From positions 43,424,401 to 43,488,400 of the forward strand of contig CM049317.1 of assembly GCA_026874595.1 (NCBI GenBank): DNA of 64,000 bases, written 5' to 3'. The notes under the pieces were generated by a model. The model was not told the origin of the DNA. It worked only from the letters and a program-made list of their open reading frames with translations, and did not search any database. The DNA is from Sipunculus nudus. Taxonomy: Eukaryota; Annelida; Sipuncula; Golfingiida; Sipunculidae. Shown one piece after another: positions 3,501 through 53,586 of the stretch (positions are counted from its first letter, which is position 1; each line of letters starts with the position of its first letter). The translations under genes and the position numbers were made by a program.

Positions 3501-5398
3501 ATTTGGTAAAATAAAAACATCTTTTCAAATAAAGTATACACACTGTTGGTTGAATGAGGGACAAACAATATCATTATGCTAATTACAATCTAAGCTTTTA
3601 TTTATTCCTGGAATTAATAGTCAATTTCACACCTTGTGAAGTTTTTACTCTTCTCAAGGAAGGAATTACTTATCTGATGAACATCCACACTTTCATAGCA
3701 ATACACCACTTTGTTGACACAATTAAATGTGAACTTTAATCATTGTAACCCTGGTGGTAAATACAAAATCTAAAATGTAGCATAGCCAAGAATAAAATGA
3801 AATACAGAAAATTATAACATTCATCTAGTTAATGCATCATCTAGGGGGGGAGGGTGTGCAGGGCAGAGAAGAAGCCTGCTAGTAGTGGCCCAGCAGAGCC
3901 AAGACAAGCTGCCTGGGGTGGGTTACATAATGCAAGTGAAGGCTTTACTACTAGGTGGGCTAGATGTAAACAACACTTGACATGGTGTATGAAAACTTGA
4001 ATAAAAGCTACTCTTTTCAATCAATTCCTTTGAAATTTCAGATTTTAAAAGATTAAATCCTTATGTATATATGCTGTGAAAATTAAATCAACAGTGCTTA
4101 CAGAAAAAAAACATGCCATTGCCAAAGTTGGACAAAATTAAGGGTATTGATTTTTTATTTAAGCTAATAACTTGAAAAATTTGCAAAATTCAGATATAAT
4201 TTTGGGTAAACAATCGAATCTTGATTAAATAAAGTTATATTCCTGACAAAAAGTCTCAAGCTTCAGCAATTCTCATCTAAGGTGAGTAAATATATTTCTT
4301 GATTTTTTAAAAAGTGCATTATGTTTGGGCCCATAACTTAAAAAAAATACACAATACTGACATCATTTCTGGCATGTGCATAGCGAATGTATAGAAAAAT
4401 ATGTATATTATATATGATCAAAGTCAGATCAGTGGTTTTGATATGAGGCAGTCTTAAAGTGTAACAATGGGTTTTTAATGGAAAAATGAAGTTTTTCATT
4501 GATATCTCGAAGGAATTAAGTCCTAGTGACCAAATTCTTGGCATGGTAGGGGATTTTGGAGAAATCCAACTGTATGCCAAATTTAAGGAACTTAGAGCTG
4601 AAGCTCGGGAGCTGAGCTCTAGCAAACTGCATAACACTAGCAATATGTGACATGGTGCTTGAAAACTTGAATAAAATCTACAGTTTTTGATCAATTGGTT
4701 TCAAATTTTTGGTGTTAACAGTTGAAATGCTAACAAAAACATGCTGTGAAAATTAAATCCACAGCAGTTACAGCAAAAAAACGTGCCATGGTCAAAGTTG
4801 GGCAAAATTTAAGGTACCAATTTTTTATTTTTGCTGATATTTTAAAAAATTTAAAAGATTTTGATCTTATTTTGGGTATACAATTTAATTTTGATTAATA
4901 AAAGTAATATTACTGGAAAAAAAGTGCTTAGCTTTAACAAGTTTTGTGTTAAGTGATAAAATTTTTTTCCTGATTATTTACAAAATGCATTATGTTTGGG
5001 CCAATAACTTTTTTAAATCATATAATACAGACCTAATTTCTGGCATGTACATAGGAATTATATAGAGAATTATTTATAGGAAATATGAGGAAAAACAGAT
5101 GAGTGGTTTTGATATAAGGCAGTCCTGAAGTGTGAAAATAGGTTTTTAATAAAAAATTGAGGTTTTTCCTTAATTTCTCAAAGGAATGAAGTTGCAAAGA
5201 CCCAGTTTTCGGCTTGGTAGGAGATCTTGGAAACATCTAACATTATGCTGAATTTTGGATTCCTAGGTCTTACGGTTTCAAAACGTGCCACATCTACGGA
5301 CGGACGGACGGACGGACAGACGGACGGACGGACGGACGGACGACGGACAATGGACCACGACTATAGCTCAGATGACTTATAGTCAGCTGAGCTAAAAA
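589..5398 (+). mobile_element. F1 repeat, long copy (4.8 kb) with internal duplications
   Basis: It starts AACAAGGGACCTATGGGTCA and ends GTCAGCTGAGCTAAAAA after a strong hairpin. The 3' module, recognisable by GTGCCATGGTCA, CAAAATTTAAGGTA and GACATCTAACTGTATGC, occurs about four times (near 1,930-2,385, 2,600-3,070, 4,100-4,580 and 4,780-5,240). That explains why this copy is twice as long as the 1.5-2.5 kb copies elsewhere. It includes a short G-run near 3,844 and a GACG microsatellite at its 3' end. There is no coding evidence: the 60-120 codon open frames recur in the other copies without conserved protein features. Confidence 0.75.
5297..5348. repeat. GACG tetranucleotide microsatellite
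   Basis: About twelve GGAC/GACG units with single interruptions (GACA). It sits just upstream of the terminal hairpin of the F1 copy, as it also does at 23,832-23,884. The position is a family feature rather than a chance microsatellite. Confidence 0.9.
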
Positions 5399-6019
5399 TA
5401 GGTCAAGGTCACCCATCTTCGAACTTGACCGAGATTTTGTCGATATACATCTTTACCGAGAAAATAAAATTATGACGGTGAATCCTATTCAAGATATCCC
5501 GCTCACAAGGTAAAAGTTAACGGACGCCGGACGGACGGATGGACGGACGGACAGCTTGGGTGACGACAATAGCGTATCAGCCTAAGGGCTGAGGGCTAAA
5601 AAGCTATCCAGGATGTATATGCATGCCGAATTTCAGGTGAATCAATCACACCACTGCAGAGATACGAGTGATTTTAACCCAAGGCAGACGAACAGATGGA
5701 CACTGTGCAAACATGGTTGCAGGTGGCGCCACCATTTTTTGTGTATGTTATAAAGCTCTCCAAGGGCTACATTTGTGCAAAAAAATTTTCCTGATCGGTC
5801 AAATGGTTCCCGAGATATGTGGGTTTATGTGTGGAAACAGACGCACAAACAGACGCAGAGCGCAGAGGAAAGGTCAGAGGTCAAAACAAAATCGGGACGC
5901 AGCAGTTCACATGTGACCCGTACATAATCCCGGGTTTAGTAAAATTCCGCCCAGCGGTTACGGAGGAGTTCTCCAGACACCTACGCGGCGGCGGCCGCGG
6001 TGGCGGCGTGCAGCTGAAA

Positions 6020-6110
6020 ACATAGTATACGCAAAACTCTGTTTTGGCGGATACAATTACTATCTAAGCTATAACTGTAACCGCCAAAACAGAGTTTTGC
6101 AGATACTATG
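6020..6110. repeat. Tail-to-tail F3 ends forming a large inverted repeat
   Basis: The 3' end of the plus-strand F3 copy (through about 6,059) faces the 3' end of a minus-strand F3 copy (from about 6,072). Each arm contains GCAAAACTCTGTTTTGGCGG or its reverse complement, separated by about 18 bases. The whole segment can fold into one long stem, and each arm is also its own terminal hairpin. Confidence 0.8.
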
Positions 6111-7171
6111 TTTTCAGTCGGCCGCCGCTGCTGCAACATAGGTTTCTGGAGAACTCCTCAGTAACCACAGGATGGAATTTTTTTAAATTTGGGATTATGA
6201 TCGGGTCACATGTGATCTGCTGTGCCCTCATCTTTGGTTGACCTCTGACCTTTCCTCTCTGCCCAGGGTCCATTTGTGCATCTGTTTCCACACATAAACC
6301 CACATATCTCGGGAACCATTTGACCGATCAGGCTTAACATTTTGCAAAAATGTAGTCCTTGGATAGCTTTATAACATACACTTAAAATGGTGGCGCCACC
6401 TGCAACTACTTTTGCACAGCATTCATCTGTTAATCTGCCTTGGGATAAAATCACTCATATCACTGCATCCGATGCACTTATTCACCTGAAATTTTGCATG
6501 TGTATACATCCTGGATAGCTTTCTTGATTTTATGACAGGTGGCGCCACCTACATTCACGTTAACATTGCAGACATCAAAGCTCAAATCTTGGGAACCATC
6601 TGACCAATTGGGCCAAAATTTTGTATGTGTATAGATCTCACATAGCTCTTCATCATACGCACAAATTGTTGCAGTGGTTTGACTTATCCATCTGAAATTT
6701 TGCAGGTTTATACATCCTGGATAGCATTCTCAATTTTAAGACATGTGGTGCCACCTACATTCACGTTAACACTGCAGACATCCAAGCTCATATCTCGGGA
6801 ACTGTTTGACTGACTGGGCCAAAATTTTGTATGTCTCACATAGCTCTTTATCATACACAAGATTGATGGCACCACCTGCCACCATTTTGGCACAGCTTCC
6901 TTCTGTTTGTCTGCTGTGGGATAAAATCACCCATATACAAGTATTGGTTTGAATTATCTGCCTTAATTTTGCATATGTATACAATTTTTATAGCTTCCTA
7001 GATTTTGTTGTAGGTGGCGCAAACTACATACACATTTCAGTTGCAGACATCCATGCTAATATGCAACACACCTCACTCTTTTTCCCCTTGCCACTCCATA
7101 CCTCACTTCACCTGTCCCACTCTGATTTCAGCCTATTCTCTTAGTCACTTGTTGACTATCTGTTTTCTAGT
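6072..7171 (-). mobile_element. F3 repeat, minus-strand copy
   Basis: Read on the minus strand it begins ACTAGAAAACAGATAGTCAA at 7,171 and ends with the GCAAAACTCTGTTTTGGCGG terminal hairpin near 6,072. Inside are at least two GGTGGCGCCACC palindromes or near copies (around 6,390 and 6,540) and several phrases shared with the array at 28-30 kb. It is non-coding. Confidence 0.8.
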
Positions 7172-9087: not shown

Positions 9088-11930
9088 CTGAAACACCAAA
9101 GTACAAGGTCATCATAATGTTCATCATTATAAAGTGTACATAAAACCTCACCCAAGTGGACCTGCTCAAGCATACTAGCCACTAAACTAGCATTATGATG
9201 TTCACCCAATGCATTACACAGATGACTATGATGATTCAAGGTTTTCTAGTTGATCTAACTTTGTGTGTCTGGAAATAACTTGTAATGCCAATCAGGGCAT
9301 GGGAGAATGTTGGACACATGATGGGTGGTTGCTGTTGAGGTAGTTGCCATCCTTTCCTTGTGGACATCACATTTCCTCTGGGACTCGTCCCAGTTGTGCA
9401 TATCACTTTATCCAGGTTAGCATGGTTTTAGCCACCCAGTAGTTAAAACCAGTAAAAAACATGGTTAAAACCATCCCGGCTAAATCAGGTGGCTAAAACA
9501 AAAAAAGTGGCTAAAACTGGCTGAGACCTCACAAACTGTTAAACAGGCCCTCAGATGTCTTCCTCAATTTGTTATGTTACCATGAACAACTGATACCCAG
9601 CAGAGGATGTCAAACAAGTTGAGACTCCATTGTGTTAACTATAATTAAAATGTGGGTTTGATCACTCTGGAGTTTCAAATGATTTAAGACTTCAGACAGT
9701 TGTTAAAATTGTTGATGTTCAATTGTTTCTGTAACCTTGGAACTTAAGTACAATGGGTGTTTTGGTAATATTTTTTCTTAATCAATCTATCATTCCTATT
9801 AGAGTGGCCAGTAAGGTCATAATGCTAAAGATGGTAGGCCGATTGGCCCCATCTGGAACCAGTTTTTTAGTCTGCCAACAGCTCCAAGGTTGCTGCTCAG
9901 TGACCAAAGGAAAACTTCCCATGGACAATTTTCCCAGTATTGTAGCCTTATCCATATTTCATTGCATTTGTTTAGATTTTTCAGCCCTGCGTTCACAGGT
10001 TGTACTCAGCAGCTGGGTTAAACATGGGTTTTACCCGGGTAAAACCTTGGTAGGCTAAAATAGGTTTAACCCAAGTATTACCAAAGAATCCTGGGTTTTA
10101 CCATTTATTCCTGTCAATGAGAGTGGTGTGCCTTGAGCAGCCAATTATATGTTAGAGTGTAACTGTTAGTCACGGCTGCATGGTTTTAGCCACCCAGCTG
10201 TTAAAATCATTTATAACATGGTTAAAACCCTGTTGTTTGAGACAAGTTTTCCCCAGTTTTAGCCACCAAATGTTTTAGCCACCCAAAGTGGCTAAAACAG
10301 GTTGGAGCTCTGTAAATCATCTAAAAGTCATGGTCTATCATAAGCATTTGGTCTAAATATATCAACAACTCATACCCAGTACAGTGTGTCATATGAGTTG
10401 AGACTCCACAGTGTGAAAATCATATTACTATAATGTGATCACTCAGTGGGGTCTGATGATTGGTTCCTGTTATTTTGAGGTATAAATACAAAGGGTGTTT
10501 TAGGTGATTTTTTTCAATCAGTCTGTGTAATGTTTACAATGTAGACTGTCAAGGGTTTCAGTACTCTTTATTGTTACATCCAGTCCTCAGTGATGAGAGG
10601 GTGAAAAACTACAAAGGAACAAAAAAACAATGATTATAATTTGACAAAGTCAGATACGGTTACACTTACATACAAATTTAACATAAAACACGTCCATTAT
10701 TACAGTAATAGTTACATGTAAAAGAGACACCAAGAATATTGTAATGATCTCTGAATGACACCAACATGTGGCGCCCCCTGTCAAGTGACACACTAATAAA
10801 ACCACACACAATACAGATGATGCAAGTACATAATTAAGTCTAATTATCTGGATATTGCAGCAAACAACTCTACCGAATATGAATAAAACCATGGAAAAAA
10901 TTCTTGTGTTTGAATGTCCTTGCTATTATGCATAATACACAAAAATACTACAGTTTATAAGAATTAAGCCCAAAATCCAAGATTTATAGTGTTACAAAAT
11001 TCCTATACTGCAACTTCATTCTGTAAATTAACCAGATAAACAGATCATATTTCTGAACAAGTACATCGTTAGAAAAATGCAAATATAAGTCTGAAAACGT
11101 TTGCATCGCAGTCTTAAAAATACTATAATGACATCATTTATGAAGGTTGATCCAGACAACACAAATTCCGAATAAACAGACAGAATACCAATATAGATAA
11201 ACTTGTGAACAAATTATTTCGGCATCATCACAACTTGGCACAACAAGGCATTTTACAACTTGACACAGAATGTATTTATACCGCTGGTTGCCACACAGAA
11301 AAAATAAAGCACCGTATTAAAACTATACCTTGTCATGCCTATAAAACCTGGCATATACTTATCGAACATATTATCTCTCAACTTACAGTAAAATAATAAC
11401 AAACTTACTCTTTAAAGGGGCCAGAATCACGACAGAAGCAGTGATTACAAGTAGCGTGGCTGCGTTATGCCAGTACGCCATAACAAATACCAAATTGTCA
11501 CGGACCGATTCGTATCGGACTGAATTATTACGGACCGAATCGTCACCCCGCCAGTTGTACCTAAACCTGGGGCGGCACAGTCTGATATCTAAAGGTCTTC
11601 CAACATCTGACCTGCCTGATGGCCTTTATTGACTTGATGGTGATTCTACAATTTTTAGTGACTTCATCAGCAGCCAACGAGAGTTCATTAGTTTTGGGTT
11701 TGTGCTGAATAAGCTACACAACAGTCTTTACACACAAACCACAGCAAAGCTGGTGATTATATAAAGAATTCTGAGAAGACCAAAGAAGCCGGGTTCTTAT
11801 TCAATGAGAAAAACTCAGTATGGACAATTTTCCCAGTATGTTGACACAATCAATATTGCATTTATTTGGAATTAGTAGCCAAGACTCACAATGATGTACC
11901 ATGAATTTTAAGTGTATTAATCTCACCTTT
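9088..11930. other. Intron with a diverged duplicated segment; otherwise unassigned
   Basis: A segment with GGTTTTAGCCACCCAG, TGGTTAAAACC and TGAGACTCCA occurs at about 9,418-9,660 and again at 10,170-10,470, suggesting an old ~750-bp tandem duplication. Between the copies is a perfect 20-bp palindrome at 10,027-10,046. From 10,650 to 11,930 nothing was recognised beyond short incidental open frames. Confidence 0.6.
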
Positions 11931-12118
11931 TCTCCGTGAAAAGTAGTTCCGTTAGTTGGCGGGTAGGTCACCCCTTGGCTTAGCCATAACACTTCACCTC
12001 GTAGTTCCGACACAGATTAAATTTTGTGAGACAGCCCTTTAGTACCAGGTCCCTTCCGTGATCCCCTGTGCCTCCTAGCAACTACGTTTGTTGTCACTAC
12101 CCTTCAATTTACTCCGAA
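11931..12118 (-). repeat. DIRS right inverted terminal repeat
   Basis: The plus-strand text from AGGTCACCCCTTGGCTTAGC (11,965 onward) to TTTGTTGTCACTACCCTTC is the reverse complement, with scattered differences, of 18,185-18,334. The outermost part (TCACCTTTTCTCCGTG, 11,931) has no partner at the left end but is complementary to the internal region at about 12,190-12,238. Confidence 0.85.
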
Positions 12119-12189
12119 CACAGCCAAAACCACAGAGTAAAGGAGAATGAAGGAGAGAACCAAGGGAGGGAAACCTGATAGCCAAGGGG

Positions 12190-12267
12190 TGTCCTACCGA
12201 GCAACTAACCAAACTACTTATCACGGAGAAAAGGTGAGTTCCACTACATTCTCTAATAGTACGTCAG
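12190..12267 (-). repeat. DIRS internal complementary region (copy of the circle junction)
   Basis: Plus-strand 12,190-12,238 ends CGGAGAAAAGGTGAG and is the inverted copy of the outer right end (11,931-11,978). It continues without a gap into TTCCACTACATTCTCTAATA (12,239-12,258), which corresponds to the outer left end (read on the minus strand at 18,359-18,331). The right end joined to the left end, in complement, is the defining feature of a DIRS internal complementary region. It is thought to template circle formation. Confidence 0.85.
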
Positions 12268-12280
12268 CAGGGCAAGAAAA

Positions 12281-14751
12281 AACAAGGGACCCATGGGTCA
12301 CGGCGCTCAGCTGTTATATATGATAAAAAATATGATTTGGGAAAGAGGCATATGCTGGTTTTGTGTGGTAATAAATATAAGCTTTATTATGAGCTGTTGG
12401 TGTTTAGCTTATGTATGATTTTGATAGTATCTTTGGAGACAGGGAAGAGGATTGATTTCATTTATTTTATTAACAAATGGAGTGCTATTGTCACACAGAT
12501 TTTGACTTGGCCATATAACTTATAAGCAGCACATATAATAAAAGAGTTTAACTATTTATTAAAATTTAATAACAAATATTGTGCTAATATAATTTTTATT
12601 AAAAATAATAAGAGAATCATATGATTTTTTTAATAAAATATAACTGAAATAATTATTAAAATAATATTATAGAATATATGCATTCATGAATACATTTTGA
12701 AAGTATTTGCACTGGTATTCAAATACTTTCATTTTTACCTGAATTCCCATTCTTATGCAAGAAATTTTATAATGGAGTACATATTTATATTTATATTCAC
12801 ATACATTTGCAAAGTATTTGCACCATGTCTGGTATTTATTCAGTTTTAGCCAAACAATGATGTTGAGAATCCAGAATATAAACAAAAGACCCATGAGTCA
12901 CGACAAAAGTTTGAAATTTTTGCAAATGCAAAATATAAAAAATATTCTATTGTAATGTTTTATATTTATATAAGCATATGAGAAGCTAAGAGGAAAGGGC
13001 CCTCCTACTTGGTTATAGTAAAGTTCTCAATATATGATTGCAAACTAATACTCTGACAAGACTGTCATGAAGAAAAACAGTAAAAGTTTTGAGATACTGT
13101 GACGCATATGAAAAATTTACAGATGGACAGGCAAGTGGACAGAATGGACTAATACCTTCATTTCACTTTCAAGGTAATAATGCATTTAAGTTTATATATA
13201 AGCCTGCTTTTTTAGCATATCCACTTTTTTCATTAATAGTTTTTATCTGATTCTTTTTTTTTATTTACAAGTGTTATAAATTTGTAATATAAAAGTGAAA
13301 ATATAAGTTAAAATATTAGAATTCTAAGTTGCAATCATTATATATCCAGATTGTAGCTCACATTGGGTCATGTTATGCATACATATATATTTTATTATTT
13401 TTAAATCAAATGTTTAAACTGAATGTAAAAGAAAATAATGCCACAACATGGCATTTACAAAATTATTCCTTGAATTCCTATTAAAAAGTTTTGCACATTG
13501 GAGTTTTCAGGACATGCTTAATTTTATTCACCAAAATAAAATAAAAGATTCAGTGAATTTGATAAAATAAAAACATCTTTTCAAAATAAAGTATACACAC
13601 TATTGGTTGAATGAGGGACAAACAATATCATTATGCTAATTACAATCTCAGCTATAATTAATAACTGGAACTAATAGTCAATTTCACACCTGGTGAAGTT
13701 TTACTCTTCTGAAGTAAAGCATTACTTATCTGATGAACATCCACACTTTCATAGCAATTCATCACTTTGTGGACACAATTAAATGTGCACTTTAATCATT
13801 GTAACCCTGGTGTTACAATACAAAATCTAAAATGTAGCATGTCCAAGAATAAAATAAAATACAGAAAATTATAACATTCATCTAGTATATGCACCAGCTG
13901 GGGGGGGGGGAGGGTTTGAGTGCAGGGCAGAGGAGAAGCCTGCTAGTAGTGGCCAAGCTGGGTCAAGGCAAGCTGCCTGGGGTGGGTTACAGAATGCAAG
14001 TGAGGGCTGTACTACTAGGTGGGCCAGATGTAAACAACACTTGACATGGTGTATGAAAACTTGAATAAAAGCTACTCTTTTCAAACAATTTCTTTGAAAT
14101 TTCAGATTTTAAAAAATTAAATCCTTATGTATATATGCTGTGAAAATTAAATCAACAGTGCTTACAAGGAAAAAACGTGCCACTGCCAAAGTTGGACAAA
14201 ATTTAAGGAATTGATTTTTTATTTATGCTAATAACTTGAAAAATTTGCAAAATTCAGATCTATTTTTGGGCAAACAATTGAATCTTGATTAAATAAAGTT
14301 ATATTCCTGAAAAAAAGTCTTCAGCTTCAGCAATTCTCATGTTAAGTGAGCAAATATATTTCCTGATTTTTAAAAAATTGCATTATATTTGGGCCTATAA
14401 CTTCAAAATAATACTGACCTAATTTTTGGTATATGCACAGAAAATGTATGGAAGAATATGAATACGAAATATGATCAAAAACAGATCAGTGGTTTTGATA
14501 TTAGGCAGACTTGAAGTGTAACAATTGCTTTTTTATGGAAAACAGGTTTTTCCTTAATATCTCTAAGGAACGAAGTTCTAATGACCCAATTTTCGGTATG
14601 GTAGGAGATTATGGGGACATCTAATGGTATGCAGAATTTTGGATTCGTAGGTCCAACGGTTTTAAAACGTGCCCTGTTAACAGACAGACGGATGGACGGA
14701 CAAAGGACCATGACTATAGCTCAGATGACTTATAGTCAGCTGAGCTAAAAA
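12281..14751 (+). mobile_element. F1 repeat inserted in the DIRS element
   Basis: It starts AACAAGGGACCCATGGGTCA (with a perfect GACCCATGGGTC palindrome) and ends with the TAGCTCAG...CTGAGCTAAAAA hairpin at 14,751. Flanking sequence on both sides belongs to the DIRS element, so this insertion is younger than the DIRS copy. A G-run (about 13,899-13,910) lies in the middle. It is non-coding. Confidence 0.85.
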
Positions 14752-14757
14752 CAAACG

Positions 14758-15746
14758 TCACGGAGAAGCGCGAACAACTCCACCGGCGGCAACAACACAG
14801 CCAGACTCCCGGAAAGAGAGAACCTGCGGAGCCATATCGCGGAGGTAAAAGGTTGCAAACCTCTCAGAACGCTTCCAGAGGCCTTGCTTAAACAGGTCAG
14901 AGATCGAGCCACATGCCGCAACCACAGGAGAGGCCATGACAGCACGGACATCATGCGCACAAATCTGAAGGGACGACAGGGTCTCGGGGGAGGCTTTCTC
15001 ATGAGCCTCGACAGTAGTATCCCGGACCCACTGAGAAATAGTAACAGGGCTGATCTCATGGACCTACTCGGCATCCTGAGAACGGGTGGTCTGAATAAAC
15101 AGATGAAGCCGCCTCCTCCCCGCAACGGAGCTGTGGCATGCAAGTAGTACCAGAGCACGTACCAGACAGTTCATGGCACCAAAATTCTGACAACCGGGCG
15201 GAAGTGCGGGAAACACCAGGGCGCGGCGGTGTCTGAGGCTTTCTGATTCTTATGAAGAAACTCCAGAGCGAACCAGAGGGTATACGAGGGGTCCGCCAGC
15301 AGGGCATGTAATTCACTGCGTCTGCCCGCCAACGCCATAGCCAACAGAAAGGCCATTTTGTGCAAGAGATGCAGGAGGGAAGCGCTCTTAAGCTGCTCGT
15401 GAGGAGGCACACTGATGTGACTCAGGACGACTCCCAGGTGCCAGGACCGGGATGGAGCTGAGTGAGGCCTCGCCTGGAATTTAACCGACTTCAGGAATTC
15501 GGAAAACACAGACTGCTTGAGAGGCAGATGAGACCCCAACGGCCGTAAGACCTAAAGCAAGGCAGCCTTATAACCCTGCAACGAAGATGGGGAGAGACGT
15601 TTCTCGAGGAACAGGAACATAAAGAACTCCATAAGCTCCTGAGCCGAGGGCCGAAGGCGGTCTTCACCCTGTTTGTCTGCCCACTCCACGCAGAGCAGCA
15701 AACGAGCGTCATAGGCTCTGTAAGAAGACCCTCTTAAGTGGAGCAC
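14758..15746 (-). pseudogene. DIRS tyrosine recombinase (broken)
   Basis: This gene would encode the site-specific recombinase that inserts the DIRS circle. The N-terminal part (15,746-15,552) has a SAM-like arm-binding region (AYDARLLL, SLQGYKAALL). One in-frame TAG near 15,552 interrupts it, then the frame resumes through 15,171. The catalytic domain shows the first arginine in LAGRRSELHAL (about 15,320). After a frame change the second box HDVRAVMAS and then FATFYLRDM follow (about 14,960-14,850), giving HxxR and the nucleophile tyrosine. The C-terminus (VVAAGGVV) and the TGA at 14,758-14,760 look natural. One stop and at least one frameshift make it a pseudogene. The catalytic residues themselves are still present. 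Confidence 0.8.
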
Positions 15747-15797
15747 CGATCAGCTGAGCTGCCGCGCGCTAAAAACCTGTACTACAGAGATGGTTGA

Positions 15798-16012
15798 CTA
15801 TAGTAAACATGTGTGCAGACAGACCAGGCTCTGAGAGTGACGAAATTGACCTTGCCGCAACATGTTGGGCCACATCGAAAGCGGGTCCCCACGGTGGTTT
15901 ATGTGAGCCACCGCCATCACATTGTCGCAGTGCATCAGAACTGGCCGGCCCCAGAGGAGAAGGGCCCAATGTCGCAGTGCCAAAAATATGGCTCTGGTTT
16001 CCAGCAAACTGA
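15798..16012 (-). pseudogene. DIRS RNase H domain (fragment)
   Basis: The minus-strand frame contains LETRAIFLALRHWALLLWG followed by PVLMHCDNVMAVAHINH. This is the DIRS/Ty3-type RNase H pattern, with the acidic residue of ET and the aspartate of CDN. The domain would remove the RNA strand during reverse transcription. It lies between the reverse transcriptase and the recombinase, as expected. The open stretch is only about 70 codons and the rest of the domain is lost or out of frame. Confidence 0.7.
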
Positions 16013-16349
16013 TGTGCAGGCAGGTCTCAGCCGCCGACCAGAGTCCGAACAGACCGCGGTCCCCCTAGTGGACACCCCATCCAGTGAGAGATGCATCAGT
16101 GTACATCACCACATGAGCCCCTGGCACAAACGAGCAGCCCTGTGTGAGCAAGCTGGGGGCACACTAGGGGCGGAGGGCCCGCTGTAGGTCCCGGCAGGGG
16201 ATATGAATGGTACGCAGGAGCGCCGCCTGGTGCAGGGGAAACCTGCGAAACAACTGCTGAGCAGACCGCAACTCCATCCGCCCAACAGGATGAATTTTGG
16301 CCGCCCAATTGAGGTTGCCCATGACCAAACCCGCATCCCGTGTGGACTC

Positions 16350-16870
16350 AGGAGCGATGTAAAAGATTGTGAATAGTACTTGCAATTTTCTCCGCCGTAT
16401 CGGTCAGTAACAAGACCCATCCACAAGACAGATGGAGATTCATGCCAATGGTCAGAACCATCCTGGCCGGGTCCAGGCACAACTTCAACTGGTTTATCAG
16501 AAAACCTTGAGACTTTACTGTATCTATCACAATGTTCTGGTGCCTGATGAGGACCCGCCGGTCCCTGTGATGGATTAGCCAGTCATCCAGGTAGGGAACC
16601 ACGGAAATCCCCCAAGACAGTAGGTGTACGGCAACTAGGTTCACCAGTTGGGAAAAGAGCCATTGAACTTGAAACTTGTGGCAGAGTTAAAGGCGTACCA
16701 TCGCCAAAGGGCTGGTCCACTTCAGAATCGTGGCGAATGGCCATCGATGGTACTTGGTCAAACAACGGGTACCGTGTTAATTTTGGCAGACTTGTTCACC
16801 TGTAATGACAGGGGCCAACGGGCCACGGTCGAGGAGGGTTTAATTCCTTACAAGTTGTAGGAGACACCTC
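16350..16870 (-). pseudogene. DIRS reverse transcriptase (broken)
   Basis: The frame 16,644-16,350 carries VVPYLDDWLIHHRDRRVLI, with the YLDD catalytic aspartates (codons near 16,582-16,593), then QGFLINQLKLCLDPARMVL, which fits the palm and thumb region of DIRS/Ty3-like reverse transcriptases. Upstream, at about 16,870-16,650, fragments in other frames (for example WSGPALWRW and FNSATSFKF-like text) suggest the fingers and palm region. The whole domain is spread over several frames, so it is inactive. The assignment rests on the YLDDWL context and on the order with RNase H and recombinase. Confidence 0.75.
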
Positions 16871-16878
16871 CCCTAGCA

Positions 16879-17920
16879 CTACCCTCTGTGAAAATCCAGG
16901 AACTTGGTCGTGGCCTGCACGAACTCCATGCAGGTGAAGCGTACTAGGGGGGTCGATGCCCTGTAGGGCGGCACAAAACCCACTTTGGTGCGTGTGCTTG
17001 ACGAGGTCCCCTCTAGCCGCCGAAATTGTGGCACATGGGCACCATTTTCTGGATCCTGGACCATACAGGTAGCCACCTGGTCCAACAGATCGTCCTGAGT
17101 CTGGGACCATAGCACCTTCTCCCGTCTGGGCCCAGATCTCTAGAGGCTCTTCCTCAGCCTCAAGATCCCCGGGAGATCCAAAGATCTCTTCCAGAAGTTC
17201 CCCCTCCCCTGGTCAACGAGGGGACTTCCAGAACTTCTGGTCTGAGACCAGGTAGCAACAGGTGCATTTGGCTCCTGGGCTGTTATCTCCTCCCGCTGGG
17301 CGTCCAGCGTCAGATACGCCTTCCTCAGCAGCAGGAAAGCCGTCACTTCCGACTTGGGCACCACGCTACTTGCCATCGAGGAATCCAGCAAAATGGCCTG
17401 ACTCCGAGTGGTAGCTTAAAGAAGATCAACAGACTCAGTTTGGACAACAGCTGACTTAAGGTCAGCCGCTGTTCGGACATAAAGTCCCCCCATATGGAGG
17501 CGATCATGGCCTTGAGAGAATCCCAGGAAATAAATTCCTCCGCAGGCCGAGGGATACTCTTTTTGAGGGGAGAAGCCCCAACCAGCACTAGTTCGGGCAT
17601 AGCCCCTACTGTGGAAAAGGTGGCAGAAGCCGCAACAGGGTCTAACTGAAGATGAAGAGGGTCCACTGAGCAGGGAGACGCAAGTTTCAGAGAAACCTGA
17701 TCGGTTTTCCTCTCCTTACACCTCCTTGAGTCCCTCCTTACAGCAGACCTCTCTCCCTCCGACGAGCTATCCTTATTAGAAGTCTCCCCCCCCCAACCTC
17801 AGGCGAGAACTTGAGAGTCCAGTCTGAAATTTTATCAGAGGGATCTTTTGTTATTTTTGAACCAAAATAAGCATCATATTTTTCCAGTCTTTCTTTTCCC
17901 AAGGGAGGCACAGAGGACAA
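16879..17920 (-). pseudogene. DIRS gag-like region (broken)
   Basis: Several minus-strand open pieces follow one another here: 17,920-17,738, 17,666-17,343, 17,391-17,140 and 17,115-16,879. One contains EEFISWDSLKAMIASIWGDF, another VVPKSEVTAFLLLRKAYLTL. No zinc knuckle was seen. The position upstream of the reverse transcriptase suggests the gag-like first gene of the element, but the sequence family was not recognised directly. Confidence 0.45.
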
Positions 17921-18184
17921 GGGTTATTGGGACAAAAACAGTCCCCAGTTATCCGAAAGCAACCTGGACAACTGTCATGGTGGTACCTATCGGGTAGGGA
18001 CCCCAAAAAAAAAGGGAACATTTCTTATTGACCTGGGGCTCAGAACGTCTCGACATAATGAGAAAGGTATTGAGCGTACTCGCGAAACCTTGTCAGAAAA
18101 CCACAGAGGCCCGGCAGAAGAGCTGATGTAGACAGCTTCCGGCATGTCGCCACAACGTTCTAAAGTGACCATCTCGGTCAGATA

Positions 18185-18359
18185 CGAAGTAAATTGAATA
18201 GTAGTGACAACAAACGTAGTTGCAAGGAGGTGCAGGGGATCACGGGAAGGGACCTGGCACTAGGGGCTGTCTCACAAAATTTAATCTGTGTCCGAACTAC
18301 GAGGTGAAGTGTTATGGCTAAGCCAAGGGGTGACCTACTATTAGCCAATGTAGTGGAAA
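18185..18359 (-). repeat. DIRS left inverted terminal repeat
   Basis: On the minus strand it begins TTCCACTACATTGGCTAATA at 18,359 and continues AGGTCACCCCTTGGCTTAGC. It matches 11,965-12,118 in inverted orientation. The sequence beyond 18,360 is ordinary AT-rich intron. Confidence 0.85.
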
Positions 18360-19746
18360 TATTTTCTACATCAATGTTATGATTTTTTAAAATTAAAATA
18401 AGATGATACACAGTGTTTGATTTCTCATAATTGATGCATTTTAATAAGCACTGCACAAGCTCTTACTGAATATTCGACAGTTTTAGCCAGTTTTAAAGTC
18501 ATTAGCTTTGGTTCCTCCAGTTTCTGTCTATTATTAGATTATGGTATGTGTGTTATGATCAATATTTTTCTACTTTAACTTTATATCACTTTAACTATAG
18601 GTCATTAAATTAGCTTATAAAAAATAAATTATAAATATGTTCATATACTTTAAGCTATCAAAAATTCATGACTTTTACAGGACCTATGAAAAAAACAAGG
18701 GACCCATGGGTCACTCTGTTCAGTTAAAGTTGACCCAGAAGATAAAAACTGAAATAATATCAAATGGAGATAAAGTTTGTGAGGAAAAGGTAATATAGGC
18801 CTTGGCTGGTTGACATGCTTGGTTTGAACTGATGAGTAAGAAATTGTTGCAAATAATATTAAACCTGAAAATGAACCATTACGAACAGCATGTTTAATAT
18901 TTCAGTCCTGCACTGTGATTTTTTTTATTTTAAGATTAAATATATACATGAAAACTTTTAAAGATTCTTTAACACTGAGAGTAGACTCTTACATTTAACA
19001 AGCTTTCAAAACTGTCCATCAGATTACTTTCAAGCACAAAGATGGCAACAACCAAAGAGTAAAATAAGGCATACGTTATGAAAAGACAAGCACTTTACCA
19101 AGTAAAAGGCTCACGTCCACATGAATATTAAGTCTGCATTACCTTAGAAGTTAGAGGTTTACAAATAACTATTTTTTAATTTGAGAACATTCGCTCTTTT
19201 CTCATTTCACAGGGTTTTCAATAATATCTATGATTCTTATCATAGTCTTCCATGTAAAAAGGGATATTTAATATTTTAACAATAAAGCAATATATACACA
19301 TAAACAACAACTAACAAAGAATACTTTATACACACATGACACATGACCTTGAAAAAGCTTATTACATGTATTCTAACACTTTAGTGGACCCCAATAAAGT
19401 AATAAGATGTCCCTGTGAATGTCCTCCATTGTGGGTATCAGTGATGGACTCAAACAAGAAATACCTACTGTGTTCATGATGATGTCCCTTTCTGAAGGTT
19501 TCCTCATGACTACTTATATGTATTGAGAAAGCAGCACCTGATACTGGGTTGTTGATACTTTCTAATTAATGTTTTTTTGTTGTTAGAGCTATGAAAAGTA
19601 CACAGAAAATCATATACAAGAACCAGTTGAACTAACCTGTAGGCCACAAGAATTCAAGCACATTTGAGCACCTTAAAAGTTTCTAAGGCTTGAAAACCCC
19701 CAAAATATTTTGTGCACCCTGAACACTTTTTAAGCACCTGTAAGAA
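18360..19746. other. Intron, AT-rich; one F1 5' end
   Basis: An isolated F1 start (AACAAGGGACCCATGGGTCA) lies at 18,694 and continues for about 130 bases in F1-like sequence similar to 21,999-22,150. The rest, to 19,746, shows no exon, repeat family or RNA gene that could be recognised. Confidence 0.5.
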
Positions 19747-27803: not shown

Positions 27804-30653
27804 ACTAGAATACGGGTAGTCAACAAGCGACTACTTGTATCCGCCTAAATCAGAGTGAAGTGAGGCATGGATTGAGTGGCAAGGGGAAATAGAGTGAAGT
27901 ATTGCATATTAGCATGGATGTCTGCAGCCAAATTGTGTATGTACTTTGCGCCACCTACCACAAAATCCAGAAAGCCGTCCAAGTTGTATACATATGCAAA
28001 ATTTAAGGCAGATAAGTCAAACCACTACATGTAAATGAGTGATTTTTGCCCTTGGCAGACAAACAGATGGACGCTGTGCAAAAAAGGGTTGCAGGTGGCG
28101 CCACCAGTTTAGCGTATGATAAAGAGCTATGTGAGAACTATACACATGCAAAACTTTGGCCAAATCGGTCAAACGGTTCCCAAGATATGAGCTTTGATAT
28201 CTGCTGCATAAACCAGAATGCAGGTGGCGCCACCTGTCATAAAATCAAGAGAGCTGTCGGGGATGTATAAACTTGCAAAATTTTAGGCAGATATGTCAAA
28301 CCACTGCCGAGATATGAGTGATTTTATCCCATGGCAGACAAACAGACGGGAGCTGTGCAAAAATGGCTGCAGGTGGCACCACCAGTTTTGAATATGATAA
28401 AGAGCTATGTGAGATTTATACACATGCAAAATTTTGGCCCAATCGGTCAAATGGTTCCCGAGATATGAGCTTGGATGTCTGCAGCGTAAACTTGAATGTA
28501 GGTGGCGCCACCCGTCATAAAATCAGAAAAGCTATCCAGGATGTATAAGCATGCCAAATTTCAGGTGAATTAGTCAAACCACTGCAGAGAAATGAGTGAT
28601 TTTAACCGAAGGCAGACGAACAGATGGACACTGTGCAAACATGGTTGCAGGTGGCGCCACCATTTTTTGTGTATGTTATAAAGCTCTCCAAGGGCTACAT
28701 TTGTGCAAAAAAATTTTCCTGATCGGTCAAACGGTTCCCGAGATATGAGCTTGGATGTCTGCAGCGTAAACGTGAATGTAGGTGGTGCCACCTGTCATAA
28801 AATCAGAGGAGCTATCCAGGATGTATACGCAGCCCAAATTTCAGGTGAATTAGTCAAGTCACTGCAGAGATATGAGTGATTTTAACACAAGGCAGACAAA
28901 CAGATGGACTCTGTGCAAACTTGGTTGCAGGTGGCGCCACCATTTTTTGCGTATGTTATAAAGCTCTCCAAGGGCTACATTTGTGCAAAAAATTTTTCCT
29001 GATCGGTCAAACGGTTCCCGAGATATGAGCTTGGATGTCTGCAGCGTAAACGTGAATGTAGGTGGTGCCACCTGTCATAAAATCAGAGGAGCTATCCAGT
29101 ATGTATATGCAGCCCAAATTTCAGGTGAATTAGTCAAGTCACTGCAGAGATATGAGTGATTTTAACACAAGGCAGACAAACAGATGGACTCTGTGCAAAC
29201 ATGGTTGCAGGTGGCGCCACCATTTTTTGTGTATGTTATAAAGCTCTCCAAGGGCTACATTTGTGCAAAAAAATTTTCCTGATCGGTCAAACGGTTCCCA
29301 ATAAAAGAGCTTGGATGTCTGCAGCGTAAACGTGAATGTAGGTGGTGCCACCTGTCATAAAATCAGAGGAGCTATCCAGGATGTATACGCAGCCCAAATT
29401 TCAGGTGAATTAGTCAAGTCACTGCAGAGATATGAGTGATTTTAACACAAGGCAGACAAACAGATGGACTCTGTGCAATTATGGTTGCAGGTGGCACCAC
29501 CATTTTTTGTGTATGTTATAAAGCTATCCAAGGGCTACATTTGTGCAAAAAAATTTTCCTGATCGGTCAAACGGTTCCCGAGATATGAGCTTGGATGTCT
29601 GCAGCGTAAACGTGAATGTAGGTGGTGCCACCTGTCATAAAATCAGAGGAGCTATCCAGTATGTATATGCAGCCCAAATTTCAGGTGAATTAGTCAAGTC
29701 ACTGCAGAGATATGAGTGATTTTAACACAAGGCAGACAAACAGATGGACTCTGTGCAAACTTGGTTGCAGGTGGCGCCACCATTTTTTGCGTATGTTATA
29801 AAGCTCTCCAAGGGCTACATTTGTGCAAAAAATTTTTCCTGATCGGTCAAACGGTTCCCGAGATATGAGCTTGGATGTCTGCAGTTTAAGCGTGAATGTA
29901 GGTGGCGCCACCTGTCATAAAATCAGAAAAGCTATCCAGGATGTATACGCATGCCAAATTTCAGGTGAATTAGTCAAGTCACTGCAGAGATATGAGTGAT
30001 TTTAACCCAAGGCAGACGAACAGATGGACACTGTGCAATTATGGTTGCAGGTGGCACAACCATTTTTTGTGTATGTTATAAAGCTATCCAAGGGCTACAT
30101 TTGTGCAAAAAAATTTTCCTGATCGGTCAAACGGTTCCCAAGATATGAGCTTGGATGTCTGCAGCGTAAACGTGAATGAAGGTGGCGCCACCTGTCATAA
30201 AATCAGAAAAGCTATCCAGGATGTATACGCATGCCGAATTTCAGGTGAATTAGTCAAGTCACTGCAGAGATATGAGTGATTTTAACCCAAGGCAGACGAA
30301 CAGATGGACACTGTGCAAACATGGTTGCAGGTGGCGCCACCATTTTTTGTGTATGTTATAAAGCTCTCCAAGGGCTACATTTGTGCAAAAAAATTTTCCT
30401 GATCGGTCAAACGGTTCCCGAGATATGTGGGTTTATGTGTGGAAACAGATGCACAAACGGATGCAGAGCGCAGAGGAAAGGTCAGAGGTCAAAACAAAAT
30501 CTGGGCGCAGCAGTTCACATGTGACCCAAACATAATCCCGGGTTTCAGAAAATTCCGCCCAGCGGTTACGGAGGAGTTCTCCGGACACCTACGCGGCGGC
30601 GGCGTCCAGCTGAAAACATAGTATCCGCAAAACTCTGTTTTGGCGGATACAAT
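27804..30653 (+). mobile_element. F3 repeat, expanded copy carrying a 280-bp array
   Basis: It starts ACTAGAATACGGGTAGTCAA with a GTAGTC/GACTAC hairpin, then TTGTATCCGCC. It ends GTATCCGC...GCGGATACAATT at about 30,653, so the 5' motif and the 3' hairpin arm are inverted copies. The interior has been amplified into a 280-bp tandem array. No protein-coding function is supported. Confidence 0.85.
28095..30440 (+). repeat. 280-bp tandem array with paired GGTGGCGCCACC palindromes
   Basis: The motif GTGGCGCCACCATTTTTTG or its variants begins at 28,651, 28,931, 29,211, 29,491, 29,771, 30,051 and 30,331, spaced exactly 280 apart. Two older units start at 28,095 and 28,373 (spacing 278). Each unit has two palindromic boxes about 140 bases apart, so it is itself a diverged dimer. 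Identical ~70-codon minus-strand open frames arise from the repetition and are not genes. Confidence 0.95.
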
Positions 30654-37603: not shown

Positions 37604-39905
37604 TTGAATGATTCACCTTGACAATTTCAGCATAATCATTTCAAGCTGAAAGAGGCTAAAATTATGACGTTTTTGCCCATAAAAGCAGTTCAATGTAGGT
37701 GGCTTCACAAAACCTGCAACTTCAAATATGAGTCATGTGACCAACATTTGCACAGTACTTGGTAATCCTAGCTTCTGTCATTTCTGTGATTACTATGTCA
37801 GTATGCTTACTTCGCCAAATGACTGTTCAAATTTGTGTAACTCCACTAAAATTCATCAAACGCAAACCATTTGAACAAACTTGAGAGGGCTTGCCTCTGG
37901 GATCATTTCTGTAAAATATTGAAAAATTTGGCTGGACTGTTTACAAGAAGAATAAGTACTTTTAAAGGTTTTTCAGCTTTTTCCCTATAAACCTAAGTAC
38001 ATCCAGGTAGCATAAAAATAAGCTAATTCCCACAACATTTGATATGTGACAGATTATTGCATAAAATCTGGGGATGGTAGCTCATGCTATTCCTGAGAAA
38101 TCATGGGTTAACGTACAGATGACCAATGACCTCCATAAAAAAAAGGTCAAAGCAGGTGGCGACACCAATACATGAATTTCATATATGACTCATGCGACCA
38201 ACACTGGCATAAAATTTGGTGATGATAGTTCCGGCCTTTTCTGAGATTGTCATTTTAGTATGCTTTTTTGGACAGATGACTTAGTTCAACTTCCCGTAAC
38301 TCTGCCAAAATTCACCGAACTTGAACCATTTGAACAAACTTGAGAGAGATGGTATAAAAGATTATTTCTGTGATATATTGAACAATTTGGCTTGACAGTT
38401 TTGCAGGAGATGATTTTAAAGGTTTATTTAGCTTTTTCTCTATAAAATCTAAGAAAATGCAGAGTTATTCAGATGGCATATTTTTTGCATTAAATTTCAT
38501 GATGCTAGCTCAAGTCATTTTTGAAATAGTATGGGTTAAAATACAGATGACAGACGCCCCCACACCATCACATTAGCTCACAGGTTCGCTAAAAATTACT
38601 ACAGATGCATAATGAATGCAAAATTTACATGAATTAAGTTGAGTATGAATACCAATTATTTATAATCCATGTACAGCCGTCTTTATATACCCACAGGGAG
38701 CTGTATACCTGTGATTGTAATCATTGCCTGGCATGAGGAATATCTAAAATCATAAATCTTCATTTTTTAAAAGCTTTTAAAAAACATTCTTGCCAATATT
38801 AACCATAAATAACCTGAAATCTAAATGTCTAGAGGCATGATGTAACAGATGCTGATAAACTGGTGCCATGCTAGAGGTATCTGTTTCACACAGCTAACAT
38901 ATATGGTAAAATGACTCAATTCAATCTTTATAATTCAGTGTATATTCATTCTTTGAAACCATAAAAGACAATTATTATATAAGAATTATTCAGGGGATTA
39001 TTCTTGTAAAATATTAAACAAATTGGCCTCAGTGGCGTCAGTCAAAAAAGTTTGCAGGTTTATAACTCATATGGGAAAATACAGCAAAATGGTTAAGTTT
39101 CCCATAACTCAGCCAAAAATCACTGAACCAAAACCATTTGAACAAACTTGAATTATCAACATCTAAGGATAATTAATGTGTGAGATTTAAGTATTTGGCC
39201 CAGTGGTTTTTGAGAAGAAGATTGGCTGTTATGGCATATGACTAAATTCAGCTTCCCACAACTCAGCCAAAAGTCACTGAACTGAGACCATTTGTATAAA
39301 CTTCAGAAAGCACTACCCTAGGATCATTTTTGTGCGATATTAAACAATTTAGCAATATGGATTCAGAGAAGAAGTTTTTTGTAGCCGTCAGTATGATACG
39401 GGCACTGATGACCCCCGTACAAAAAAGGCTGATGCAGGTGGCGCCACCAATACCTTAATTTCAGATATGACTTATGTCACCAACATTGGAATAAAATTTG
39501 GTGATGATAGCTCCAGCCATTTCTGAGACTGTAATTTTAGTATGCTTTTTTGGACAGATGACTAAGTTCAACTTTCTGTAACTTGGCCAAAAATCACCGA
39601 ACTTGAACCATTCGAACAAACTTGAGAAAGATTGTTCTAGGGATCATTACTGTGAAATATTGGACAATTTAGCTGAACAGTTTTGGAGAAGAAGATTTTT
39701 AAAGGTTTTTTAGCTTTTTCTCTATAAAATCTAAGAAAATGTAGTTAGCCAAAATATAAGCAAAATCTGACAGAGTTTTTTGGATGACAAATTATTTGCA
39801 TAAAATTTTGTAATGCTAACTCTTGCCATTTTCAAGATAGTATAGGTTAACGTACAGACGACGGACAACACCACTCCATCGCATAAACTCACAGGTTTGC
39901 TAATA
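37604..39905 (+). mobile_element. Two successive F4 3' segments
   Basis: Both contain CCATTTGAACAAACTTGAGA and GCTTTTTCTCTATAAAATCT-like text and the end AAGCTCACAGGTTCGCTAAA (38,595; a decayed version near 39,900). A short stretch at 38,596-38,760 between them was not assigned. Confidence 0.7.
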
Positions 39906-47098: not shown

Positions 47099-48881
47099 AT
47101 GTCCCGCACTGTAGGAAAACCAACAAAATTTGTTAAAGACCTAGAAGGCTTCATTAAAAAATTAAGTAAATCAGAACAAAAAAGACTGACTGAAATAAAC
47201 AAAAGGATTAAAACCCTAAAAACAACAGCGCTGACAAACATGACCAAAAAGAACACCATTAGGTCCACAGGACATCAAAAACCCGAAAACAAACCTACAA
47301 ATGACAAACACAAAGTCACAAACAACAAAAAAACAACAAACGACAAAACCAAAATTGCCCAGATCAAAACAGACATGAATGAAACTAAGAGCCAGGTCAA
47401 TGCTCCAGCATCGGACTCCAAACTAGCGACCTGAATGACCTCAAAACAACATTAATGAAACAGGTTGCAGAAATAGAAAGACTAAATGACACCATAAACA
47501 AACTGCAAGAAAAACTCAACAGTCGTGACGAACAAATCAAAACCATGACTGACAAGCTATTCAGCCTAGCAGAGAGACAAACAAACCCAAACTATGAACA
47601 AACACAAAACACCCAAACTCCACCCTCCCCCCCCGGACTAATCAACATGGAAACAGCACTAGACCAATTAGATGAATTCAAAGTAGACCTAACCACTAGG
47701 CGGACAGTGAGAGCACACCCACGCTCAGCCAGAAAACACCCAACAACACAAACAAACAAACCAAAATTCCAACTAAAAACAGAAACACCGCTAGAAACTA
47801 TAAAAAAAATGGAAGAAAACTATGACAAAAAAATCAGCTCACCAAAAAGAAAGACAAGATCACCAATAAATGACAAAGCCAAATCCCCCGAGGAGCCAAA
47901 ATCAAGGAAAAACAAAAACAAACAACCCCAACAAAACCCGAAACAACAACAAACATACAAAACCAGGAAACAACTACCACGACTGAGAACCAACAAAAAG
48001 CTACTGAACCATCAGAACAAATCACAACCACGCTAGATGAAACTGACATGGACACAGAACAAACAACGACAACAAACCAAGCCAATCAACCAAACAACAA
48101 ACACAAACATCCAAATAAGGGAGTCATTAAAGGCATCCCGACAGATATAACAAATGAACACATTGCCCAACAATTAGGTGAGATCGGAGTCATTGAGGCT
48201 CACCGACTAGGAAAAACCAAAGCAATAAAACTCACTTTTGCAACAAACAAAGAATACCAAACAGCCATGAAAAACAAAATAAAACAAGACAACCAAACCC
48301 ACAATCTGACAAAATACCAAGAGCTGTGCGAGATAGGGCAGTGTTACAACTGTCAACGTTTCGGCCACTCAGCCAAACAATGCAAGGAAACCCCCCGCTG
48401 CCTCAGATGCGGCAAGGAAGGCCACACCCTCAATAACTGTGAAACTAACCGACAAAATGCAAAATGTGCAAACTGTCAGGGAGCACACATTGCCAGCTAC
48501 AAATCATGCCCAATCTACAAATTGGCCAACCTAAAACACAGGCAACAAGAGAGTCTCAATAAAGAAAAAATACGCAAAGTACCACTTTTACCGGCCCCGC
48601 CCCCAAAACGCCTCGCATGGGCGGCCCAACATAATATACCACCCCCGCTGACACAAGCCCATAGCCAAAACCCACACATAATACAATCAACCAAAAACCT
48701 AACATTCCTCGCCCTGGCGATGAAAGAAATCCTACCAAACAAATCTCTCTCTGAAATATGCAATGTCCTATCTGTAGGACACAAATACGCATACAATTTC
48801 ACTGTTCATCCAAGAACAGTTGAAAGTTACGTTAGCAAAGAGCAACACTACAAACTAAACTACCCTGCACTATCAAGATAA
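47099..48881 (+). pseudogene. Jockey-like retrotransposon ORF1 (gag-like), frameshifted
   Basis: ORF1 proteins of this group bind element RNA. Coding text runs from the ATG at 47,099 in one frame, shifts near 47,400-47,430 into a coiled-coil segment (AEIERLNDTINKLQEKLNSR), shifts again near 47,880, and ends at 48,881. The last part has a short RNA-binding-like fold (GVIKGIPTDITNEHIAQQL) and three zinc knuckles at about 48,340-48,525: CYNCQRFGHSAKQC, CLRCGKEGHTLNNC and CANCQGAHIASYKSC. The middle is very basic and Gln/Asn/Lys rich. Two frameshifts break it. The sense strand is strongly A+C rich and G poor. ORF2 follows after about 75 bases. Confidence 0.85.
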
Positions 48882-48954
48882 ACAACCCGTAATTAGTGCA
48901 TTCAATAGTGTAAATAATAAAAACACTAACACCCCAAATAACCCCCCCAACACA

Positions 48955-51664: not shown

Positions 51665-52013
51665 AAAATAAAATCCCCTCTAGATTACATCCTAGAGGGA
51701 AAAAATCAACAATAACAAAATAAATATTTAATAAAACTAATAAATTAAATAAAATATATAAATATAAAACATCAAAAACCGCACACACAAGCCTCCCAAA
51801 CGAAAACCCACAATTCAGAACCCAACACTCACAAAAACAAGAGGTCAGCGATATAGGTCGCGACCCCGCACCTGTAAACCGACCTGACCTCCATTTAACA
51901 TACCCCGACCTTTGAGCAATAGGGGGATCGAATCTGCAGAGGTAATTCAGACCCCTGCAGCTGGCATCCCCTAATTTGCATACTAGGTCCACGCAACCCA
52001 AATAACACACAAT
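51665..52013 (+). other. 3' untranslated tail of the Jockey-like element with structured hairpin
   Basis: It contains AGGTCGCGACC (a self-complementary box at about 51,866), ACCCCGACC, then the hairpin CTGCAGAGGT-AATTCAG-ACCCCTGCAG (51,934-51,960) and GGCATCCCCTAATTTGCATA. The same order of boxes occurs three more times at 54.1-55.0 kb. No poly(A) follows. Confidence 0.75.
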
Positions 52014-52131: not shown

Positions 52132-53586
52132 TGGAGACTGGATACCTTGTTGCAGGGATCCCTACAGAGATTCTGAAGAACCGGATTCTTCGCTACCAGT
52201 TATTACAGCGCACATTCCCAGAGATTGTTTTTGACTGTATAGCAGCGACTTTACGTCCATTCAAGTTCAGCGAATGTTGATGGACAACTATGCAGTCTAC
52301 GGAGATGGAATTCTACTCAGGAATTTCGACAAGTACAAGACATTACCCCTACCAAGCACAGACCGAAGAGACGTCTACCGAGAAATAGAACAACAGAGTA
52401 CCCTATCGTAATGAAGGGAGTTCCAGTAGATATCTCGGAGACCGACTTGATACGCCAACTCAGTTTGAACCCCGCCGCTGCTGTCAGATTGAAAAACAAC
52501 AGAGGCCAGCCCACAATGCGAGTCAAGCTAATCCTTAAAGACCAACAAACCGCAGACCAAGCCCTACACAATGGAGTGTGCATTGGACCTGAACGGTTCT
52601 CTACCGAGCCCTACAGAACACTGATTATTGATTTTTGCGGACGGTGCCTCGGCTGGGGTCATCCCAGTAGAAGTTGTGAACAACAACAAAAGTGCTATCG
52701 ATGTGGCAGCGGGGACCACCTGACTAAGAACTGTACAGCTCAGACAGCAACATGCGCCAACTGCCCAGGCCAGCATTCATCCGCTTACCGCGGGTGTCCA
52801 TTCTATAGAAACTTCAAGAAGAGAGCCACTACAATTACAATACCAGAGAAAACACTGACACAGCAGAGTCCACCTACCACTACCCCGATGGAAGTAGAAC
52901 CCCCAGCTCAGACCACCACCCATACAAGGACACCACCAAGAATGAGAACAGCAGAGATTCAAGCCACTACACGTACAACAACCCAGATTTGCCAGACAGA
53001 TGGTGAAATAACAACACCCGACACCCCAACAGCGAAACCACGTAAAACAACTAGATCTGTTGAGACCCAGGCTACTTCCAGAACAAAGTCTAAGCTATGC
53101 CAAACCACGAAACCGCCAAAGTTACAACACCAAGAAACGCAAACAACCCCAGTTATGGCCAACACATCAACTCAGACTGAACCAGAGGTTTACGATAATG
53201 CCGCTAGATGTCGACACTACCCTAGAAACGACCCAAATCAAGCTATGGAAACTGAATCTTCAGATGATGACGAATTTCAAGACTGTGACGATGAAGAAAA
53301 CAGGACTACTGCAATCTCAAGCGACATGATGAGAAGACTTGAAGAAGCCCGGCAGAACGAAATCCAATTAAGAATAGCAAAAGGCCTTTCTCCCACCTCT
53401 CCAGCAACAGATAAGTTAATAGCAGCAGGAAAATCATCATCATTCGAATTCCAACTTACTCCAGATGAAGCCAGAGGATTGGAATTTCTACCCATATATG
53501 AAAATCCAGTACCCCAAGAACCCCCCAGAACAAAGTCAACCCAGAAAGTAACCAAGAAGAAGAAAAAGCAGCCCAGATGGAAATAA
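52132..53586 (+). pseudogene. Second, different gag-like gene without a reverse transcriptase
   Basis: A Jockey-type gag with an N-terminus METGYLVAGIPTEILKNRIL at 52,132 is interrupted by a frame change near 52,275 and another near 52,390. It is then open for 391 codons from 52,411 (MKGVPVDISETDLIRQL). Three zinc knuckles lie at about 52,635-52,800: CGRCLGWGHPSRSC, CYRCGSGDHLTKNC and CANCPGQHSSAYRGC. A Thr/Gln/Pro-rich tail follows, then an acidic patch (SSDDDEFQDCDDEE), and the protein ends very basic (KVTKKKKKQPRWK). The function is presumably RNA binding and particle formation. It is only distantly similar to ORF1 at 47,099. No endonuclease or reverse transcriptase follows within 2 kb. 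Confidence 0.8.

What the first reader, a model, noticed from the sequence alone, without database searches (positions are those of the whole stretch)
11931..18359. Near-complete DIRS-like element with an intact internal complementary region
Gene order (gag-like, YLDD reverse transcriptase, RNase H, HxxR...Y recombinase), inverted termini and a segment that joins the complements of the two outer ends (CGGAGAAAAGGTGAG next to TTCCACTACATT) are all visible. The DIRS family has exactly this layout. The element would be missed by gene-only annotation because its genes are broken and a 2.47-kb repeat separates the recombinase from the right end.
Basis: partly seen in the sequence, partly recalled or inferred. 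Interest (0 to 1): 0.8.

Follow-up and report, generated by a model that had tools for sequence, protein, structure and literature searches.

The report
Decayed DIRS1-like retrotransposon copy
This is a broken, old copy of a known kind of jumping gene (a DIRS1-like retrotransposon) that still shows the unusual mirror-image ends and internal "ring-closing" sequence of its kind, so it is a clear but ordinary new member of a known family.

Summary
Window 11,922-18,358 (sense strand minus) is a DIRS1-like tyrosine-recombinase retrotransposon. It has inverted termini (about 154 nt at 93% identity), an internal complementary region (12,180-12,266) that joins the complements of both outer ends, gag, YLDD reverse transcriptase (RT), RNase H and HxxR...Y recombinase (YR). 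Other copies in the same 1.43-Gb genome carry the terminal piece directly beside the genes, so the 2.47-kb segment is a later insertion and the refutation test fails to refute. Of 150 RT homologues, 72 have a YR homologue downstream on the same strand, typically at about 2.1 kb (control 0 of 65). Another family member has a paralogous empty site inside this very window (37,905-38,328): a single AAC/GTT, no target duplication, as DIRS integration predicts. Two claims are too strong. The copy is not near-complete: about 1.1 kb (gag end plus RT motifs A and B) and about 0.5 kb (methyltransferase region) are missing. Its internal region is about 30 bp shorter than in relatives. The deletion junction is private, so the copy did not multiply in this form. 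DIRS1-like elements with this layout, including in molluscs, were described in 2011. Ordinary; interest low.

The parts
11922..18358 (-). whole DIRS1-like copy, sense strand minus, including a later insert
   Evidence: ends fixed by comparison of 15 independent 5' ends and 6 independent 3' ends
18185..18358 (-). left terminus (5' ITR), begins TTCCACTACATT
   Evidence: inverted match to 11,963-12,116; same start in 15 distinct loci
17568..18068 (-). gag-like N-terminal part with Cys motifs, frames broken
   Evidence: tblastn with L026 gag ORF, E 9e-11
16658..17020 (-). gag-like C-terminal part, cut short
   Evidence: tblastn with L028 ORF 2160-2837, residues 1-125 of 226, E 1e-42
16663..16671 (-). 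deletion join: gag end and RT motifs A and B absent
   Evidence: 1,128 bp in L028, 1,055 in L029 and 702 in L030 between the same points, 8 here; join private to this copy
16363..16668 (-). RT C-terminal part with YLDD
   Evidence: RVT_1 E 1.8e-4; residues 233-334 of L028 RT, E 2e-34
15975..16346 (-). RNase H region
   Evidence: RT_RNaseH E 0.0037; 78% to L030
15882..15974 (-). place where the MT region of relatives is missing
   Evidence: L026 carries about 0.5 kb here; RT-YR distance 1,590 vs about 2,075 typical
14764..15881 (-). tyrosine recombinase: SAM-like N part, AGRRSELHAL, HDVR, FYLRD; frames broken
   Evidence: Phage_int_SAM_1 E 2e-4; alignment A1; tblastn
12281..14751 (.). later 2.47-kb repeat insertion, not part of the element
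   Evidence: absent at this point in L026, L031, L033, L037; other copies end at the same base 14,751
12180..12266 (-). internal complementary region, ring junction at 12,238/12,239
11922..12116 (-). right terminus (3' ITR plus right extension)

Best explanation
A degenerate, immobile copy of a low-copy DIRS1-like retrotransposon family. While active, the family is inferred to be transcribed on the minus strand and copied by its RT and RNase H. The ICR is inferred to hold the two complementary ends together so that the cDNA closes into a ring, which the tyrosine recombinase inserts at an NTT trinucleotide without target duplication. Shown here: the anatomy, RT-YR linkage, and insertion without target duplication for a sister copy. 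Inferred from published models: RNA copying, ring intermediate, recombinase action. After insertion this copy was hit by a 2.47-kb repeat, frame breaks and deletions of the gag end plus RT core and of the MT region (order not determined).
For: ITRs and ICR far beyond chance. Same ends in 15 distinct loci, -1 base G in 12 of 15, every ICR junction read here GTT, 4 of 6 right flanks TT. Relatives keep terminal piece and genes together. RT nearest to Ty3 and retroviral RT among solved structures, E 4e-6, unlike a LINE RT of the same window. RT-YR linkage 72/150 vs 0/65 control, shifted mean 0.085. Empty-site paralogue of the L031 insertion in the window at 37,905-38,328, ungapped across the join. 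The window insertion itself lies in a dispersed repeat whose empty copies run through the join with no duplicated target. Layout matches PMC3266345.
Against: The YR is only weakly seen by profile libraries, and a fold from the window piece alone was useless (pLDDT 39). No RT tree with named DIRS, PAT, Ngaro and Gypsy references could be built. At this copy's right junction the host repeat is about 8 bp shorter than in empty sites, so its own insertion is not base-perfect.
Confidence: 0.96

Rival explanations
1. Chance or secondary juxtaposition: the 12-kb terminal piece and the genes belong to different elements brought side by side by the 2.47-kb repeat.
For: They are separated by 2.47 kb in the window.
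Against: In L026, L031, L033 and L037 the terminal piece runs into the recombinase end within about 50-110 bp, with no insert; both window ends are complementary to each other and to the ICR.
Confidence: 0.01
2. A PAT- or Ngaro-type element (split direct repeats) rather than DIRS1-like.
For: These also combine RT/RNase H with a tyrosine recombinase (PMC3266345); the window copy lacks a recognisable MT, as Ngaro does.
Against: Terminal repeats are inverted and the internal region is complementary to both ends; no split direct repeats. The relatives L026 and L028 carry a segment between RNase H and YR where DIRS MT lies.
Confidence: 0.02
3. A non-autonomous deletion derivative that multiplied in trans, keeping only termini, ICR and scraps of genes.
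For: Termini and ICR are kept while RT is lost, and several copies (L031, L032, L034, L035) have large internal deletions with kept ends.
Against: The deletion joins of the window copy and of L031 are each unique in the genome, and breakpoints differ between copies, as for independent decay after insertion.
Confidence: 0.05

Closest known systems
DIRS1-like retrotransposons of molluscs (LgDIRS1-3 of Lottia, AcaDIRS1-2 of Aplysia; PMC3266345)
   Same: inverted termini with a right extension, ICR whose two halves complement both ends, 3-bp junction of NTT type, pol and YR without long overlap reported in molluscs
   Different: this family uses GTT (listed mollusc elements ATT or AAT), and the conserved ITR is about 150 nt (31-141 in the listed mollusc elements); this copy is decayed
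DIRS-1 of Dictyostelium discoideum
   Same: founding layout: ITR, ICR, gag, RT/RNase H, YR
   Different: ITRs there are about 316 bp and YR overlaps pol (PMC3266345); here YR lies mostly downstream of RNase H
Ngaro and PAT elements
   Same: RT/RNase H plus tyrosine recombinase
   Different: they have split direct repeats, not ITR plus ICR

Membership tests
DIRS1-like | inverted terminal repeats | tested here: met
DIRS1-like | internal complementary region complementary to both ends, joined at a 3-bp ring junction | tested here: met
   about 30 bp shorter than in relatives
DIRS1-like | reverse transcriptase and RNase H of the Ty3 side | tested here: met
   for the family; this copy keeps only the YLDD part
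DIRS1-like | tyrosine recombinase (R, HxxR, Y) downstream of pol | tested here: met
   motifs in alignment A1, SAM-like domain E 2e-4, linkage; profile support weak
DIRS1-like | methyltransferase domain after RNase H | tested here: inconclusive
   relatives L026 and L028 carry a conserved segment there, missing in this copy; no Pfam match to a methylase, identification from memory only
DIRS1-like | no target-site duplication; NTT termini | tested here: met
   sister copy L031: empty site ungapped, one AAC; 15 left ends; the window's own junction has about 8 bp less than empty sites
DIRS1-like | RT and YR phylogeny with named references | not testable with these tools
PAT / Ngaro | split direct repeats A1-B1-A2-B2 | tested here: not met
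   termini and ICR match only in inverted orientation
LTR retrotransposon | long direct terminal repeats and target duplication | tested here: not met

The most novel reading that the evidence does not exclude
Deletion derivatives of this family that keep only termini and ICR can be moved in trans by the many related DIRS elements with long open frames in the same genome, which would make termini plus ICR the sufficient cis signals.
Probability: 0.06. Interest if true: 0.35.

Novelty: new member of a known kind. Interest (0 to 1): 0.14.

Why it matters
It adds one more decayed DIRS1-like family to a well-described class. Its practical use is as an annotation example: gene-only annotation would miss it. 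The within-genome empty sites give direct evidence for insertion without target duplication at GTT in a low-copy family.

Tried and rejected
Single-sequence fold of the window YR piece: pLDDT 39, discarded. Profile of YR against solved structures and Pfam: no recombinase match; one weak integrase match in PHROGs (E 0.007). Relatives in viral contigs: none. Gapped pattern search for the L031 empty site: no exact match, solved instead by the copy inside the window. The joined-flank search for L026 gave matches over the full query, but the query held three extra bases and no alignments were returned, so it is not used as evidence. Rfam: no match. Considered and rejected: chance juxtaposition, PAT/Ngaro, LTR element.

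Full report
What is there. The region 11,922-18,358 was read on both strands. The sense strand is minus. The two ends are inverted copies: 11,963-12,037 against 18,264-18,338 (75 nt, 99%) and 12,051-12,116 against 18,185-18,250 (66 nt, 88%), 93% over 154 nt. An internal region reads, on the plus strand, AGCCAAGG...GGAGAAAAGGTGAG followed directly by TTCCACTACATT...: the first half is the complement of the outer right-terminus sequence (52/59), the second the complement of the outer left-terminus sequence (25/28). Dinucleotide shuffles never came near these scores (97 vs 13; 38 vs 12; 19 vs 10). This is the ITR plus ICR layout described for DIRS1-like elements (PMC3266345).

Genes. Pfam finds RVT_1 in the YLDD frame (E 1.8e-4), RT_RNaseH (E 0.0037) and the integrase SAM-like domain (E 2e-4), in that order along the minus strand. 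The recombinase C-terminal part keeps HDVR and FYLRD and aligns with 12 other copies. Reading frames are broken by stops and shifts.

How complete. With the relatives as yardstick, window 16,663-16,671 (8 bases) corresponds to 1,128 bases in L028, 1,055 in L029 and 702 in L030. The L028 RT matches the window only from residue 233 of 334, after motifs A and B, and the gag end stops at residue 125 of 226. Between RNase H and YR about 0.5 kb is missing that L026 has, where DIRS elements carry the methyltransferase; the RT-to-YR distance is 1,590 here against typically about 2,075 in other copies. The left half of the ICR lost about 30 bp. The copy cannot be autonomous.

The insert. In L026, L031, L033 and L037 the terminal piece joins the recombinase end within about 50-110 bp, so 12,281-14,751 is a later insertion. 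Other copies of that repeat end at the same base (14,751) in L027, L028 and L030. An AAAAACAA occurs at both borders (seen), which may be a target duplication or part of the repeat.

Ends and target. Fifteen distinct left ends begin at the same base; the base before TTCC is G in 12 and T in 3. Every ICR junction read here shows GTT, and four of six distinct right flanks begin with TT. The family thus begins and ends with GTT, one of the trinucleotides listed for other DIRS1-like elements. For the sister copy L031 the joined flanks match, without gap across the join, a repeat copy inside this very window (37,905-38,328): CCCACAACATT with one AAC where the filled site has AAC on both sides. So there is no target-site duplication apart from the shared trinucleotide. 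The window's own insertion lies in a dispersed repeat. Empty copies read gtattAAT-ATATTTGTT-TATTTTC where the window has gtattAAT-[element]-ATATTTTC, no duplication but about 8 bp less on one side. Whether these 8 bp were lost at insertion or belong to a variant repeat cannot be told.

Is the RT really of the DIRS kind. A full RT of the family (L028) finds Ty3 and retroviral RTs first among solved structures (E 4e-6), while the LINE RT elsewhere in the window finds group-II-intron and retron types weakly. Genome-wide, 72 of the best 150 homologues of the window RT have one of the best 150 YR homologues downstream on the same strand within 8 kb, nearly all between 1.4 and 2.7 kb; none of 65 best general RVT_1 hits does, and shifting positions gives 0.085 on average. 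A tree with named references could not be made.

Copy history. The family is low in copy number: five RT-fragment DNA matches and about 55 terminus matches (many partial) in 1.43 Gb (lower bounds), while more distant DIRS recombinases are plentiful (691 first-look candidates, some in open frames of more than 600 aa). The deletion joins of the window copy and of L031 occur nowhere else, so these are private decays, not a multiplying non-autonomous family.

Mechanism. Inferred from the published model (PMC3266345): RNA copying, pairing of both ends with the ICR to close a ring, and recombinase-driven insertion at a matching NTT. Shown here: anatomy, linkage and duplication-free insertion of a sister copy. 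Not shown: activity, ring form.

Verdict. A correct call of a known kind, with this copy more decayed than stated. The host was not identified.

Noticed in passing
window 47389-51665 (+): Non-LTR retrotransposon with CCHC knuckle ORF, endonuclease and RT (Pfam), fairly long frames; a second CCHC ORF (447 aa) at 52243-53586.
   Followed up: partly
window 37905-38328: Copy of an abundant repeat (3,068 first-look candidates in the genome) that serves as the empty site of the L031 insertion.
   Followed up: yes
window 12281-14751 and 18690-18723: Dispersed repeat starting AACAAGGGACCCATGGGTCAC and ending CAGCTGAGCTAAAAA; a second start lies just right of the element; several head-to-tail copies in L028 and L030.
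   Followed up: partly
window 62009-63641 and 27906-30427: Large tandem arrays: 59-bp unit x 27.7 and 280-bp unit x 9.
   Followed up: no
G000 C3:12.97-13.27 Mb and C14:19.22-19.30 Mb: Dense clusters of RT ORFs, many of about 969 aa and nearly equal score, mostly on one strand; may be a site-preferring element or a tandem expansion.
   Followed up: no
L037 256-4275: A second, different DIRS-like pol/YR region next to a family relative (4765-6485) in the same locus.
   Followed up: no
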